A program made the position numbers and the translations under genes. Below are positions 11,634 to 16,904 of a stretch of DNA of 64,000 nt, in pieces; the stretch's first letter is position 1, and every line of letters begins with the position of its first letter. The notes beneath the pieces were generated by a model. It saw nothing but the letters and a program-made list of their open reading frames with translations. It was not told the origin of the DNA and ran no database searches. This DNA comes from an uncultured Nitrospirales bacterium (GTDB taxonomy: Bacteria > Nitrospirota > Nitrospiria > Nitrospirales > UBA8639), in NCBI GenBank assembly GCA_958295805.1, contig OY282373.1, positions 2,017,001 through 2,081,000 on the forward strand. Direction: 5' to 3'.

Positions 11634-12740
11634 CTAGGCACAAAGTTCTTCATAGACGGCCAAGGTTTGCTCGGCCGTGCGTTGCCACGTGAAACGATTC
11701 GCTTGTTTCAAGCCCTTCGCAATCAATGCCCGGCGGAACGAGCCGTCTTCGATAATTCGCAACAACGCCTTCCGCACGTCCGTTTCGTCGTGAGGATGAA
11801 TGAACACCGCCGCGTCCCCTGCAACTTCAGGAAGCGCCGTCACGTTGGACGTAATCACCGGCGCGCCGCACGCCATGGCTTCGAGCACGGGAAACCCAAA
11901 CCCTTCATACGTGGATGGAAAGAGAAAGGCCGTGGCATGAGAATAGAGAAGACGGAGCACGTGTCTCGACACCGTGCCCGGACAGTACACGCGCTCGGCA
12001 ATGCCCATGGCCCGAGCCGTTTCCAGGAGATCATCGCCGCGAGACTGACGACTTCCCACCATAATCAAGGGGTAGTCGCGTAACGGTGCCGGTGCCTGAC
12101 TGACCGCGTGACAGACGAGGCGATGATTCTTCCGCGGATCGGCTCCCCCGACAAACAACAAATACGCCGTGTCGGGAAGCCCAAGGTCATGCTTCACCTT
12201 TATCCATGCCGGCTCATTATGATCGGGATAAAATCCGACGGGCGTGCCGTGATGAACGACGTGGATGCGCTCCGAAGGAAAATTCAGCCATTCTTGAAGG
12301 TCTCGTGCCGTCGATTGAGAGACGGCGATGACGCGCTGAGCCGACCACACGCGCCGCTTCAATCGCTGCAACGCCCATCGCTCACCACCCAGCTTCTTGC
12401 TGTATTGAGGATACCGCCACAACCACAAATCATGGAGCGTGAGCACGGTGCCGGAAGCCCCCGTGGTGTGGAGTTGAAAGTTTGTCCCATGGTACACGTC
12501 CAACTGATCCCGTTTCCCCGTTGTTCGCCGATTCCACCAACGCATGGATGCCCACGACGCGGCACCCGTTTTCGTGACGTCTCTCAAATCCTCAGGAAGG
12601 GACGTCCCTCGTGGCGTATACAGTCGCAACTCATGACGCGACTTGCGATCGACCAATGATCGGATCAAATGCCGCACGTAGAGCCCTACTCCGCCGTGAC
12701 TCGCCACCACCGGCCCTGCATCGATTCCCACGCGCATCAT
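11634..12740 (-). CDS. Glycosyltransferase family 4 (GT-B fold)
   Basis: 368-residue GT-B enzyme. The N-terminal glycine loop is [16 protein letters not shown], the donor domain has [15 protein letters not shown], and the catalytic E-x7-E motif reads [22 protein letters not shown]. It retains a nucleotide sugar donor, with specificity unknown. The start overlaps the stop of the upstream glycosyltransferase gene (ATGA), showing translational coupling. Probably part of LPS or exopolysaccharide synthesis. Confidence 0.88.
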
Positions 12741-13885
12741 CCCCTCGCCAAGCTGCCACCGGACCTGGTTCGTAAGACGTTCTCATAACCGTGAACAAGT
12801 TCGTCCATCATTCTCGCAACGGTGAACCGTTCTTCCACTCTCCGACGTCCTTGAACGCCAAAGGCTCGACGACGTTCAGGATCTGACAGCAAGGTGAGCA
12901 CGGCCCGTGCAAGGGCCTGAACATCACCGGTTTTGACCAGCAACCCCGTGCGTTGATGGTGAATTCCCTCTGACAGACCGCCTGCGTCCGTTACGACCAC
13001 GGGTCTTTCCATGGCCATCGCCTCAAGAACCGCAAGACACAGACCTTCCGTCCGTGACGGCTGGATGTAGACGTCGAGCGTTGCGACGTAAGCAGAGACG
13101 TCGGATTGGAAGCCGAGAAAATGGACGTGTCCCTCAAGTCGCAGCCGTTTGACTTCACGGCGAAGCCGTCGTTCGTATGCACCCTCGCCTTTGCCGATAA
13201 TCAGATAGTGCGTATGGGGAAATTCGGCGATGATGCTCGGCATCGCTTGAAGTATCAAGTCATAGCCTTTCCATGGAAACAGATTTGCCACGGTCCCCAA
13301 CACCGTGTCGTCACGGGAAAGACCAAGCGTCTGCCGAATATGATGGCCGTTCACGTTCAAGGTGAAACGATCCAGGTCAAGACCGCTGTACAGAGTCTGT
13401 ACCCTGTGTGGGGCAATCCCACTGGCTTCAAGAGAATGGCGGATGTGATTGGAGACGACAAAAACATGAGCCATGTTATTCAATTCATACAAGATGGCCC
13501 TGGACGGTTCAATTTCTGCGCGAACGTGCGCCATAACCGGGATGGGAAACTGTCGAGACGCTCGCAAGACTTGCGGCACCCACCAGATGTCATTGACGTG
13601 GATGATGTGGGGGCGTATCGATGCAATGAGTGATTCGAGAGCCTGAACGCTTTTGCTCCGAGCAAAGAAGGCATTCCATTTTCTCCACGCCGGAAACGGG
13701 GCATCGCGTGTTTCCATGGAACAAGCGGCCAGTTCCTGTTGCAGAGGGGATGGGCATGGACACACGACAATGGGACGGTACCCCCGCCGAGCAAGCTGAT
13801 TGACAATCAGAATCAGCTCACGTTCAGCCCCGCCGATGGCACCAATGCCATGAACGAACGCTATCGTCTTCCCGTCCAACGCCAT
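12737..13885 (-). CDS. Glycosyltransferase family 4 (GT-B fold)
   Basis: 382-residue GT-B enzyme with an N-terminal GIGAIGGAERELILI loop, the donor-site phrase GTVANLFPWKGYDLILQAM and the E-x7-E region PSRTEGLCLAVLEAMAMERPVVVTDAGG. First gene of the three-gene operon 12737-10547. No obvious promoter was found in the 193 bases upstream of it (13886-14078), which separate it from the accessory module. Sugar specificity cannot be deduced. Confidence 0.87.
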   Translation of the reverse strand: MALDGKTIAFVHGIGAIGGAERELILIVNQLARRGYRPIVVCPCPSPLQQELAACSMETRDAPFPAWRKWNAFFARSKSVQALESLIASIRPHIIHVNDIWWVPQVLRASRQFPIPVMAHVRAEIEPSRAILYELNNMAHVFVVSNHIRHSLEASGIAPHRVQTLYSGLDLDRFTLNVNGHHIRQTLGLSRDDTVLGTVANLFPWKGYDLILQAMPSIIAEFPHTHYLIIGKGEGAYERRLRREVKRLRLEGHVHFLGFQSDVSAYVATLDVYIQPSRTEGLCLAVLEAMAMERPVVVTDAGGLSEGIHHQRTGLLVKTGDVQALARAVLTLLSDPERRRAFGVQGRRRVEERFTVARMMDELVHGYENVLRTRSGGSLARG

Positions 13886-14078: not shown

Positions 14079-15401
14079 TCAGATTCGATCAAGGGCGTCG
14101 GTTATCGCGTCTCGTTCAATGCGCCCGTTGTTGACCAGCAACGTGCGAATCGTCAGCGGCGAAACCTTGAAGCGCTCTGCCGCGTCGTCGCGGCGTTCTT
14201 CGGAGAGGTCGTCGCCGAGAAACGCATCCACCGCCTCGAACGGGCACAGCAGTTCAGCCGCGAAGGCGCGTTGGACCTTCTGCCGGTAGGTATAGGACTG
14301 AGTCGCCGGCAACAGCGGTTCTTCGCCGCCACCGCACAACCGGTCTCCCACCAGCCTCGCCAAATCGAAACGCCGCCCCGTCTCCCACTTCGAGCGCAGA
14401 GTAACGCGCGAACCCCCGTTGCCGTCATCGAACATGAACGATATCAATTTCGTAGGCCGGTCAGGGACGTCGACCGCAGCCTGCATGGTTCCGGCAAGAT
14501 CGGCCAAACGTGAATTTTCGATGGTCTCCCCATTCAGCGCCTCCTGACGCCGCAACGCCCGCGCCGCCGTCACGCCTACCTTCCAGGCTTCGCACGAACC
14601 CCAGGCCGGGATACCATCGCGTGAATCCAACCTCACGGCGTCCTGCGGCCGAGAATCGAACCCGTGAAGTCTTGATTCCTCTACCACTTCCGCGGCGGAC
14701 GGGACGCCGATGCCCTGCCATGGGTGAGCCGCCAACTCCTCCAGCGCGTCATGACCGAGGCGCGTCGCGTCTGCGAGTGACGTAAGGATCTCGTTCTCAT
14801 CAACCTCGTCTGGATCATGGCCGAGACGCGCCTCAAAGCGGCGGAAACGCGAAAGCGCCTCATCTTCCCGCGCCCGTTTGAGATCGTGCCACAAACGGTG
14901 GAGATTCGTATCACGGACGTTCCGCTCATTCAGCAGTTCAAGGACGCATACGATAAAGCGGTCCATGCTCTGCTCCAACACGCCGGCGGACACCGACTCT
15001 GTTCTTGGTGCACCGACGTATCGAAACAACGCAGCTTCGGGTTCGACGGTCGGAGCCGACGTCAAATGTGAACGAAATCCGTCAGACGAAATTTCGACGT
15101 TGGGCCATACATACCCTTCTCCGATTGACGACAAGCGATGAGCAAAGTCCCACTCACGACCAGCCTCACCCGCCGGTCGAGATTCCCAGAGCAGCCGCCA
15201 CCAATTCCAAGCCAGCCACTGAGCAACGTGGTAACCCGAAACATACGGCCCAGACCGAAGTTCGTTTCCGTCGACACCAACGCCTTCGGTCAGACGCCGC
15301 CCATTCGCTTTCAAGACAAACGCGCCGAACGTCGCGCTCTCTTCCTCAGACCCGCGGTCAAGGGTTTCTGGAACCAGCGATAACGTCAGGTGTTCCTGCA
15401 T
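14079..15401 (-). CDS. Degenerate IrrE/ImmA-like protein of a two-gene module
   Basis: 440 residues. The last 97 (from about 344) resemble the C-terminal half of ImmA/IrrE metallopeptidases: RRFDLARLVGDRL, then QRAFAAELLCPFEAVDAFLGD, AAERFKVSPLTIRTLL and NNGRI. The zinc motif HExxH expected at LAHELGH is absent (LARLVGD), so peptidase activity is unlikely. The first 340 residues are unrecognised, soluble and rich in Trp, Arg and Glu. The start is set at 15401 because AAGGA lies six bases before that ATG, inside the upstream gene; the overlap with that gene is 16 bases. Possibly a regulator or a defence component; function unknown. Confidence 0.6.
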   Translation of the reverse strand: MQEHLTLSLVPETLDRGSEEESATFGAFVLKANGRRLTEGVGVDGNELRSGPYVSGYHVAQWLAWNWWRLLWESRPAGEAGREWDFAHRLSSIGEGYVWPNVEISSDGFRSHLTSAPTVEPEAALFRYVGAPRTESVSAGVLEQSMDRFIVCVLELLNERNVRDTNLHRLWHDLKRAREDEALSRFRRFEARLGHDPDEVDENEILTSLADATRLGHDALEELAAHPWQGIGVPSAAEVVEESRLHGFDSRPQDAVRLDSRDGIPAWGSCEAWKVGVTAARALRRQEALNGETIENSRLADLAGTMQAAVDVPDRPTKLISFMFDDGNGGSRVTLRSKWETGRRFDLARLVGDRLCGGGEEPLLPATQSYTYRQKVQRAFAAELLCPFEAVDAFLGDDLSEERRDDAAERFKVSPLTIRTLLVNNGRIERDAITDALDRI

Positions 15402-15817
15402 GTCCATTCCTTAATCACCCATTCGCGCATGGTCCAGTCGTCTTTGCGCAATCGATATCCATGGTAGCTTCGCCCATCACCTCCGAGCTTCGCTTCGTAC
15501 ACGTTGCCCTGCTCGTCTTGCGCCCAGATGTACTTAGGCAAGTCGTTCTGCTGCTCCATGCTGACCATGCCGCGAGCAATACCGTCCTTGAAGAGCCGCG
15601 TAGCTTCCTCAAGTCTAATGACTCGTTTGTCATCGCACAACGATTTCGAGGGTCTCGGACTGGCCGGCGGGTGAAATCCGTAATCAGCAGGTTGACTCTT
15701 GTGATGTGGACTCCCACGATAACGCCCCGTGCCCGCGAAGTCGTTGAGTTGTTCTTCAGTGAAATGATCGGCTTTTGCAATCCGACGCTTGGGATTGTTT
15801 CCCATGTATTTCTTCAT
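15386..15817 (-). CDS. Small partner protein of the IrrE-like module
   Basis: 143 residues, soluble and basic at the N-terminus. Recognisable blocks are NPKRRIAKADHFTEEQL, a Pro-rich centre (PPASPRPSKSLCDD), IARGMVSMEQQNDLPKYIWA and YEAKLGGDGRSYHGYRL. I recall similar 'NPxRR...GSPxHK...PPAxPRPxKxLCD...HGYxL' proteins next to large ORFs in other genomes, but cannot name the family. It is the first gene of the pair and overlaps its partner, so the two products are probably made together. A promoter with a palindrome lies 70-100 bases upstream. Confidence 0.6.
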   Translation of the reverse strand: MKKYMGNNPKRRIAKADHFTEEQLNDFAGTGRYRGSPHHKSQPADYGFHPPASPRPSKSLCDDKRVIRLEEATRLFKDGIARGMVSMEQQNDLPKYIWAQDEQGNVYEAKLGGDGRSYHGYRLRKDDWTMREWVIKEWTCRNT

Positions 15818-15886: not shown

Positions 15887-15915
15887 ATACTGCCCAACGT
15901 CATGACACGTGTCAA
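15887..15915 (-). promoter_or_regulatory. Putative promoter and operator of the IrrE-like module
   Basis: On the - strand TTGACA (15915-15910) is followed after 17 bases by CAGTAT (15892-15887), a perfect -35 with a weak -10. The 12-bp perfect palindrome TGACACGTGTCA (15903-15914) covers the -35 hexamer, where a dimeric repressor would block polymerase. Confidence 0.4.
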
Positions 15916-16040: not shown

Positions 16041-16367
16041 ATGAGCACGATCAGTTTTGATACCCATACGTTTGTGAAGCGCCTGACCCAGGCGGGCATG
16101 CCGATAGCGCAAGCCGAAGTGCTGGCGGATTCCCAGGCTCAACTGATTGATGACAGACTCGCCACGAAGCACGATTTGAACGAATTGGAAGCCCGGCTGA
16201 CCCGCGACATCAAGAAACCAGAATCCCGACTGGCCCTCACCATCAAGGAAACGGAAACCAATCTGTCCCATGCACTCAACGAATTTGCCCGGCAGCTCAC
16301 GATCCGTTTGGTTTCCATTGTGGTCATCGCTATTGGGGTCGTGGCCATGCTGGTAAAACTCCTTTAA
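16041..16367 (+). CDS. DUF1640 family coiled-coil membrane protein
   Basis: 108 residues with the typical plan of short bacterial DUF1640 proteins: FDTHTFVKRLTQAGMPIAQAE at the N-terminus, the LATKHDLNELEARL block, a predicted coiled coil of about 40 residues and a C-terminal membrane helix (LVSIVVIAIGVVAMLVKLL). It would be inner-membrane attached with the coiled coil in the cytoplasm. It resembles the products at 8928 and 58632. These proteins are often dispersed in many copies in a genome; role unknown. Confidence 0.75.
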   Translation: MSTISFDTHTFVKRLTQAGMPIAQAEVLADSQAQLIDDRLATKHDLNELEARLTRDIKKPESRLALTIKETETNLSHALNEFARQLTIRLVSIVVIAIGVVAMLVKLL

Positions 16368-16506: not shown

Positions 16507-16755
16507 ATGGAAACGATTGAGGCATCTGACTTTAAGGCGCGCTGTCTGGCTATCCTTAATCGCGTGCAGGCGACGGGTCAGCGAGTCGTCATCCTGAAGC
16601 GTGGCCGGCCTGTCGCGGAACTCTCGCCCACACGTCCAACCATGGCTGAATATCCCCAGATGGAGTTGAAGGGCTCCGTTACTGTAGTCGACGACATCAT
16701 TGGGCCGGCGATTCCAGAAGAGCACTGGGACAGCGACAAGGTATCTCTCCAATGA
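16507..16755 (+). CDS. Phd/YefM-family antitoxin
   Basis: 82 residues with the standard N-terminal fold: METIEASDFKARCLAILNRVQATG, then VVILKRGRPVAELSP, the DNA-binding and dimerisation part of Phd/YefM antitoxins. The C-terminal part (LKGSVTVVDDIIGPAIPEEHW) is the toxin-neutralising tail found with VapC toxins. The next reading frame begins inside its stop codon and encodes only the end of a VapC. The antitoxin itself looks intact and could still act as a repressor. Confidence 0.85.
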   Translation: METIEASDFKARCLAILNRVQATGQRVVILKRGRPVAELSPTRPTMAEYPQMELKGSVTVVDDIIGPAIPEEHWDSDKVSLQ

Positions 16756-16904
16756 TCGCGACGGAACTGGCGTCATTGCCCAATTCCTTTCACCGTGACC
16801 CAGCGGACCGGATTCTTGTAGCAACCGCTCGCGTGCTTGGCGCGACGTTGCTGACGCAAGATCACAGAATCGTCGACGCGGCGCTGGTCGACACGGTGAA
16901 CTGA
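16752..16904 (+). pseudogene. Remnant of a VapC (PIN-domain) toxin
   Basis: A 50-residue frame overlapping the antitoxin stop codon (ATGA). It contains LPNSFHRDPADRILVATARV and LLTQDHRI, the third and last conserved blocks of PIN toxins that accompany Phd antitoxins. A complete toxin has about 130 residues; here the N-terminal 80, with the first catalytic aspartate and the helix pair, are missing. The deletion looks internal, since the usual start overlap is kept. It should have no RNase activity. Confidence 0.8.

What the first reader, a model, noticed from the sequence alone, without database searches (positions are those of the whole stretch)
14079..15817. Two-gene module: degenerate IrrE-like protein plus small partner
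A 440-aa protein with an ImmA/IrrE-like C-terminus lacking HExxH, and an overlapping 143-aa protein with an unnamed conserved pattern. They share a promoter covered by a perfect palindrome. They sit in an accessory patch next to a decayed toxin-antitoxin pair. Arrangement, overlap and operator-like site resemble a toxin-antitoxin or phage-defence regulatory pair, but no known system matches.
Basis: inference. Interest (0 to 1): 0.6.

Follow-up and report, generated by a model that had tools for sequence, protein, structure and literature searches.

The report
Uncatalogued toxin–antitoxin-like pair with dead protease
Two overlapping genes form a mobile pair found together in bacteria of many phyla; the pattern of gene loss suggests that the small one is a cell-stopping toxin and the large one, which carries a family-wide dead ImmA/IrrE protease domain, is its antidote, but toxicity has not been tested.

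Summary
Window 14079-15407(-) encodes 442 aa (440 from the second Met) and 15386-15817(-) encodes 143 aa; the genes overlap. Neither protein matches Pfam, NCBIfam, PADLOC or PHROGs. Both have relatives in at least eleven phyla and on plasmids, but not in the 59 nearest genomes. Of 104 loci, 87 carry both genes intact and adjacent. In 11 the large gene is intact while the small one is broken or absent. In none is the small gene intact without an intact large one. Two alphaproteobacterial surveys, one per gene, hit the same 6 of 337 genomes. AlphaFold models (pLDDT 92 and 94) show the large protein's C-terminus with the ImmA/IrrE fold (CapP Z 12.1), its HExxH replaced family-wide by R..GD. Its N-terminus weakly resembles CdiI immunity proteins (Z 6.6). 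The small protein's only structural hints are ribonuclease toxins (CdiA-CT Z 4.5; MqsR, RelE and HigB lower). One R. etli homologue of the large protein sits beside a TumE toxin gene instead. Best reading: a RosmerTA-like toxin-antitoxin system with a pseudo-ImmA antitoxin and an undescribed toxin family. The palindrome is not conserved and no promoter was found; a phage-defence role is untested.

The parts
15386..15817 (-). Small gene, 143 aa: predicted toxin. Invariant Y33, H39, C61, P94, W98, E108, Y118, G120; near-invariant K40, R55, K58, D62, H119, Y121, W138
14079..15407 (-). Large gene, 442 aa (440 aa from the second Met at 15401): predicted antitoxin
14913..15407 (-). Large protein residues 1-165: alpha/beta domain, weak fold similarity to CdiI immunity proteins and Whirly/PUR-alpha proteins (Z 4-6.6)
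14613..14912 (-). Large protein residues 166-265: helical linker region containing invariant R189, E192, A193, G196, G218, E224
14082..14612 (-). Large protein residues 266-442: pseudo-ImmA/IrrE domain (aligned 276-442 to CapP Z 12.1), including an HTH-like stretch 388-434
14343..14357 (-). Residues 351-355, position of HExxH, here RLVGD; R351 in 100% and D355 in 89% of the family
14241..14285 (-). Residues 375-389, family signature RQKxQRAFAAExLCP, replacing the helix that carries the third zinc ligand in ImmA/IrrE
15386..15407 (-). Overlap of the two reading frames (22 bp; 16 bp if the second Met is used)
15903..15914 (.). Perfect palindrome TGACACGTGTCA, 85-97 bp upstream of the small gene; probably incidental

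Best explanation
A mobile toxin-antitoxin-type operon. The first gene encodes a small toxin, most likely a ribonuclease of the BECR/RelE-like or CdiA-CT kind. The overlapping second gene encodes a neutralising antitoxin. Its N-terminal CdiI-like domain is inferred to clamp the toxin, and its C-terminal pseudo-ImmA/IrrE domain, which has lost the catalytic HExxH site, is inferred to sense a signal or regulate rather than cut. When the antitoxin is lost or its sensing domain is triggered, the freed toxin would halt growth, protecting kin from phage or stabilising the carrier. Shown here: pairing, order, overlap, wide horizontal spread, family-wide loss of HExxH, C-terminal fold (predicted), and loss of the small but never of the large gene alone. 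Inferred: toxicity, neutralisation, RNase activity, which domain binds, and the trigger.
For: Pairing: 87 of 104 loci have both genes intact and adjacent; in 79 of 79 measured pairs the large gene starts within 30 bp of the small gene's stop, 33 with the ATGA overlap. Surveys of the same 337 alphaproteobacterial genomes with each gene separately hit the same 6 genomes, always adjacent. Direction: 11 loci keep an intact large gene with the small one broken or absent (two more are contig edges), including three tandem solitary large genes in L046; no locus has an intact small gene without an intact large one. The 13 intact small genes found by searching with the small protein all have the large gene. 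Where the large gene is broken or gone (L044, L075, L105, L115, R. etli NXC12 plasmid L141) the small one is broken too. Partner swap: an R. etli plasmid homologue of the large protein, fused to an HTH, follows a TumE gene (PF20126, E 9e-7), and TumE is an experimentally validated toxin (PMC10584680). Relatives: RmrA models hit 45 of 67 members, and RmrA is the ImmA-domain antitoxin of RosmerTA (PMC10440598). Fold: small protein ranks CdiA-CT, MqsR:MqsA, RelE, HigB; large N-domain ranks two CdiI proteins. Pairwise distances of the small protein follow the N-domain (r 0.62) better than the C-domain (r 0.43). Spread: 19 phylum changes on the tree.
Against: No toxicity or neutralisation data. The fold matches for the small protein are weak (best Z 4.5; Foldseek none below E 0.4), and for the large N-domain moderate (Z 6.6). 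Most loci were found with the large gene, which under-samples broken large genes. No conserved operator. The R. etli partner swap is a single case.
Confidence: 0.72

Rival explanations
1. Reverse roles: the large protein is the toxin or effector and the small protein its inhibitor or regulator.
For: Small-first order and a large multi-domain second protein also fit an effector with a small regulator; 442 aa is long for an antitoxin.
Against: Solitary intact large genes exist, including three in tandem, and small genes decay alone, while the converse was never seen. ImmA-domain proteins are antitoxins in RosmerTA. The catalytic residues of the large protein's only recognised enzyme-like domain are gone.
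Confidence: 0.12
2. A non-toxic regulatory or sensor pair: pseudo-ImmA protein plus small partner forming an obligate complex that regulates other genes.
For: HTH-like stretch in the C-domain (residues 388-434); HTH_DeoR hits in 5 members; ImmA/IrrE proteins are mostly regulators (PMC2701414).
Against: Mobile and sporadic distribution, one-sided gene loss, partner exchange with a known toxin.
Confidence: 0.12
3. An orphaned contact-dependent-inhibition toxin/immunity cassette: the small protein is a secreted-toxin tip cut loose from its delivery protein, the large one an immunity protein.
For: Best fold matches are a CdiA-CT and two CdiI proteins; solitary immunity-like copies in tandem in L046.
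Against: The small gene is a free-standing reading frame overlapping the large gene, with no delivery domain noticed; CdiI proteins with an ImmA domain are not known to me.
Confidence: 0.1
4. A catalytically active RosmerTA-type protease that uses different metal ligands.
For: R351 and D355 are conserved at the HExxH position rather than drifting.
Against: No HExxH in any of the relatives, and the third-ligand helix reads RQKxQRAFA.
Confidence: 0.04

Closest known systems
RosmerTA (RmrT-RmrA) anti-phage toxin-antitoxin systems
   Same: Two-gene module; ImmA/IrrE-fold protein as the presumed antitoxin; varied toxin partners; PADLOC RmrA models hit 45 of 67 relatives at E<=1, best 1.4e-7
   Different: Protease motif lost family-wide; N-terminal CdiI-like domain where RmrA-type proteins often have an HTH; small partner matches no PADLOC model better than E 0.019; no PADLOC hit for the window proteins
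ImmA/IrrE/PprI/CapP metallopeptidases (Peptidase_M78, COG2856)
   Same: C-terminal fold, CapP Z 12.1, PprI 9.8, IrrE 9.5
   Different: HExxH and third-ligand helix replaced in all relatives
TumE-TumA (DUF6516) toxin-antitoxin systems
   Same: One large-protein homologue (L010, R. etli plasmid) sits just downstream of a TumE gene
   Different: Window small protein is not TumE; no Pfam match
BECR-fold RNase toxins (CdiA-CT, MqsR, RelE, HigB)
   Same: Weak structural rows, Z 2.2-4.5; similar size
   Different: No sequence match; Foldseek finds no confident match

Membership tests
Type II toxin-antitoxin system | Two adjacent, overlapping co-directional genes retained together across genomes | tested here: met
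   87 of 104 loci intact and adjacent; 79/79 within 30 bp
Type II toxin-antitoxin system | Toxin gene not tolerated without antitoxin gene, antitoxin may stand alone | tested here: met
   0 loci with small intact alone versus 11 with large intact alone
Type II toxin-antitoxin system | Toxin stops growth and antitoxin neutralises it by binding | not testable with these tools
   needs expression assays
Type II toxin-antitoxin system | Autoregulation through an operator upstream | tested here: inconclusive
   HTH-like stretch in the model, but palindrome not conserved and no promoter found
RosmerTA | Antitoxin carries an ImmA-type domain recognised by RmrA models | tested here: inconclusive
   45 of 67 relatives at E<=1, best 1.4e-7, but the window protein has no hit
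RosmerTA | ImmA protease domain with HExxH | tested here: not met
   no HExxH in any relative
RosmerTA | Partner is a described RmrT toxin | tested here: not met
   the small protein and 59 relatives match no RmrT model in PADLOC-DB 2.0.0
RosmerTA | Phage protection | not testable with these tools
   needs phage challenge
ImmA/IrrE (M78) metallopeptidase | Fold | tested here: met
   CapP Z 12.1, 157 residues, rmsd 3.1, on a predicted model
ImmA/IrrE (M78) metallopeptidase | HExxH zinc site | tested here: not met
   R351..G354 D355 in its place
BECR/RelE-like RNase toxins | BECR fold | tested here: inconclusive
   CdiA-CT Z 4.5, MqsR complex 3.6, RelE/HigB 2.2-2.8
CdiI-type immunity protein | Fold of the N-terminal domain | tested here: inconclusive
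   B. dolosa CdiI Z 6.6 over 121 residues, E. cloacae CdiI Z 5.3

The most novel reading that the evidence does not exclude
An undescribed, cross-phylum family of toxin-antitoxin defence systems in which a catalytically dead ImmA/IrrE domain, fused to a CdiI-like immunity domain, acts as the phage or damage sensor that releases a new family of ribonuclease toxin: toxin release by a pseudo-protease, not by proteolysis.
Probability: 0.3. Interest if true: 0.75.

Novelty: new variant of a known kind. Interest (0 to 1): 0.58.

Why it matters
It would add a toxin family with hundreds of members in at least eleven phyla that the Pfam, NCBIfam, PADLOC and PHROG copies searched here do not cover. It would also pose a clean question about ImmA-domain antitoxins: do they need their protease, or is the domain a sensor? 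A family that has lost catalysis everywhere but kept the fold and the partner makes that testable.

Tried and rejected
Single-protein scans against Pfam, NCBIfam, PADLOC and PHROGs found nothing for either window protein at E up to 10; a later NCBIfam scan of three other typical pairs also found nothing. Single-protein scans of viral contigs found nothing; an alignment scan gave one viral contig; phage records gave none, so the module is rarely carried by known phages. Profile search of PDB sequences gave only chance rows. Foldseek of the small model against PDB and viral structures gave nothing confident. Palindrome-operator idea rejected as unconserved. PADLOC scan of 130 flanking ORFs returned scattered hits, at most 2 members per family, with no control set, so no defence-island claim is made. 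A search for an empty site in congeners failed because the neighbouring glycosyltransferase is also without a strong match in the 13 other genomes of the genus. Literature searches found no paper describing the pair, but the library is open-access only.

Full report
OBSERVATION. The 442-aa frame runs 15407 to 14079 on the minus strand and the 143-aa frame 15817 to 15386. Neither protein matches any Pfam, NCBIfam, PADLOC or PHROG model at E up to 10. The ImmA/IrrE likeness is therefore below single-sequence detection in this protein, but it is real in the family (below).

NOT ANCESTRAL TO THE HOST. Neither gene occurs in the 59 other genomes searched, which include 13 congeners. The tree places the window protein with two Pseudomonadales MAGs (support 99/93; best identity 58%), inside a clade that mixes Pseudomonadota and Rhodothermota. 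The large gene's G+C is 0.604 against 0.549 for the window. Horizontal acquisition is the likely origin (inference).

A WIDESPREAD FAMILY. tblastn found both genes side by side, in the same order, on plasmids of Massilia, Sphingomonas, Rhizobium and Allorhizobium. Profiles also found small homologues beside the large gene on Agrobacterium and Tistrella plasmids. Phage records hold none and 2.9 million viral contigs gave one.

PAIRING AND ITS ASYMMETRY. A profile of the small protein finds it directly upstream of the large gene in 82 of 88 loci. Over 104 distinct loci, 87 have both genes intact, and in 79 of 79 measured pairs the large gene starts within 30 bp of the small gene's stop, most often with the ATGA overlap. 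Searches with each gene on the same 337 alphaproteobacterial genomes return the same six genomes. On 340 cyanobacterial genomes the eight full-length large genes all have the small one beside them, one of these frameshifted. Loss is one-sided: 11 loci keep a full large gene while the small gene is truncated, frameshifted or absent (L012, L015, L023, L029, L046, L048, L056, L058, L083, L084, L114), and two more are undecidable at contig edges. No locus has an intact small gene with a broken or missing large gene. Where the large gene is damaged or gone (L044, L075, L105, L115 and the R. etli NXC12 plasmid L141) the small gene is damaged too. L075 passed the automatic length test as intact, but one search shows both its genes cut short. 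L046 carries three tandem large genes and no small gene. The ascertainment caveat is that most loci were found through the large gene. The 13 further intact loci hit in searches with the small gene also all have the large gene. This is the pattern expected if the small protein is harmful without the large one.

STRUCTURE. AlphaFold2 gave confident models from family alignments: small, pLDDT 92.4; large, 94.2. In the large protein, residues 276-442 match CapP (Z 12.1, 157 residues, rmsd 3.1) and Deinococcus PprI/IrrE (Z 9.4-9.8). At the HExxH position the family has R351 (100%) and D355 (89%), and the helix bearing the third ligand reads RQKxQRAFAAExLCP. No relative has HExxH anywhere. The protease site is lost throughout the family, not just decayed in this genome. 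Residues 5-155 give B. dolosa CdiI (Z 6.6, 121 residues), E. cloacae CdiI (Z 5.3) and Whirly/PUR-alpha proteins; such Z values can be only a common arrangement, so this is a lead. The small protein has no confident Foldseek match. The VIA-align second look ranks a CdiA-CT complex chain (Z 4.5, 65 of 69 residues), MqsR:MqsA (3.6), RelE, HigB and the RelE-domain protein Cami1 (2.2-2.8). The scores are weak, but most of the list is ribonuclease toxins. Distances of the small protein correlate better with the large N-domain (r 0.62) than with its C-domain (0.43), consistent with, not proof of, the N-domain being the contact surface.

LINKS TO KNOWN SYSTEMS. PADLOC's RmrA models hit 45 of 67 large proteins at E<=1 (best 1.4e-7) and capP 19, through the C-terminal half. 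[quoted passage not shown] Makarova et al. had already noted COG2856-Xre fusions beside RelE and PIN toxins (PMC2701414). In R. etli IE4771 a homologue of the large protein, fused to a winged HTH, lies just downstream of a TumE gene (PF20126, E 9.1e-7); TumE is a validated translation-targeting toxin (PMC10584680). That is one example of the large protein's family pairing with an unrelated, proven toxin family.

MECHANISM. Most likely the small protein is a growth-arresting toxin, probably an RNase, and the large protein is its antitoxin, with the N-terminal domain as clamp and the pseudo-ImmA domain as sensor or regulator. CapP- and PprI-type domains have been linked to DNA-damage or single-stranded DNA signals (general knowledge; a PprI-ssDNA structure is), so a nucleic-acid trigger is a plausible guess. 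The trigger, the RNA target and any phage role are inference.

MEMBERSHIP AND NOVELTY. It works like a RosmerTA-type system, but is not filed as one: the protease motif and the known toxin partner were tested and not met. It is not an M78 peptidase by its active site. It is a new variant of a known kind, with a toxin family absent from the four libraries searched.

PALINDROME AND PROMOTER. TGACACGTGTCA at 15903 is one of 18 perfect palindromes of at least 12 bp in the window (about 16 expected by a simple 1-in-4096 count); relatives show no excess of palindromes upstream and no sigma-70-like site was found.

DEFENCE ISLANDS. Some plasmid copies lie near defence genes: Dpt genes in Massilia, restriction endonucleases in Agrobacterium, a DNA methyltransferase in Rhizobium Pop5 and, beside a fragment of the large gene, an N-6 DNA methylase in Acidithiobacillus. 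The flank scan had no control, so no enrichment is claimed.

Noticed in passing
window 16507-16904: Phd-type antitoxin gene intact (PF02604) followed by only the C-terminal ~54 codons of what looks like a PIN toxin: another case of toxin lost, antitoxin kept.
   Followed up: partly
window 12737-13885: Glycosyltransferase gene next to the module has no strong match in 13 other genomes of the genus, so the surrounding polysaccharide cluster may itself be accessory.
   Followed up: partly
L046:4441-8925: Three tandem large-gene homologues without any small gene (Hasllibacter MAG), like an immunity-gene array.
   Followed up: partly
L031:1878-8201: Chromatiaceae locus with several copies: a complete divergent pair, a truncated small gene with an intact large one, and large-gene fragments.
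   Followed up: no
L010:6940-8903: R. etli plasmid: TumE toxin gene followed by a winged-HTH protein fused to the large-protein family, a possible new TumE antitoxin type.
   Followed up: partly
window 16041-16367: Small CCDC90-like coiled-coil gene matching PHROG 17872 (E 8.7e-15), unknown function.
   Followed up: no
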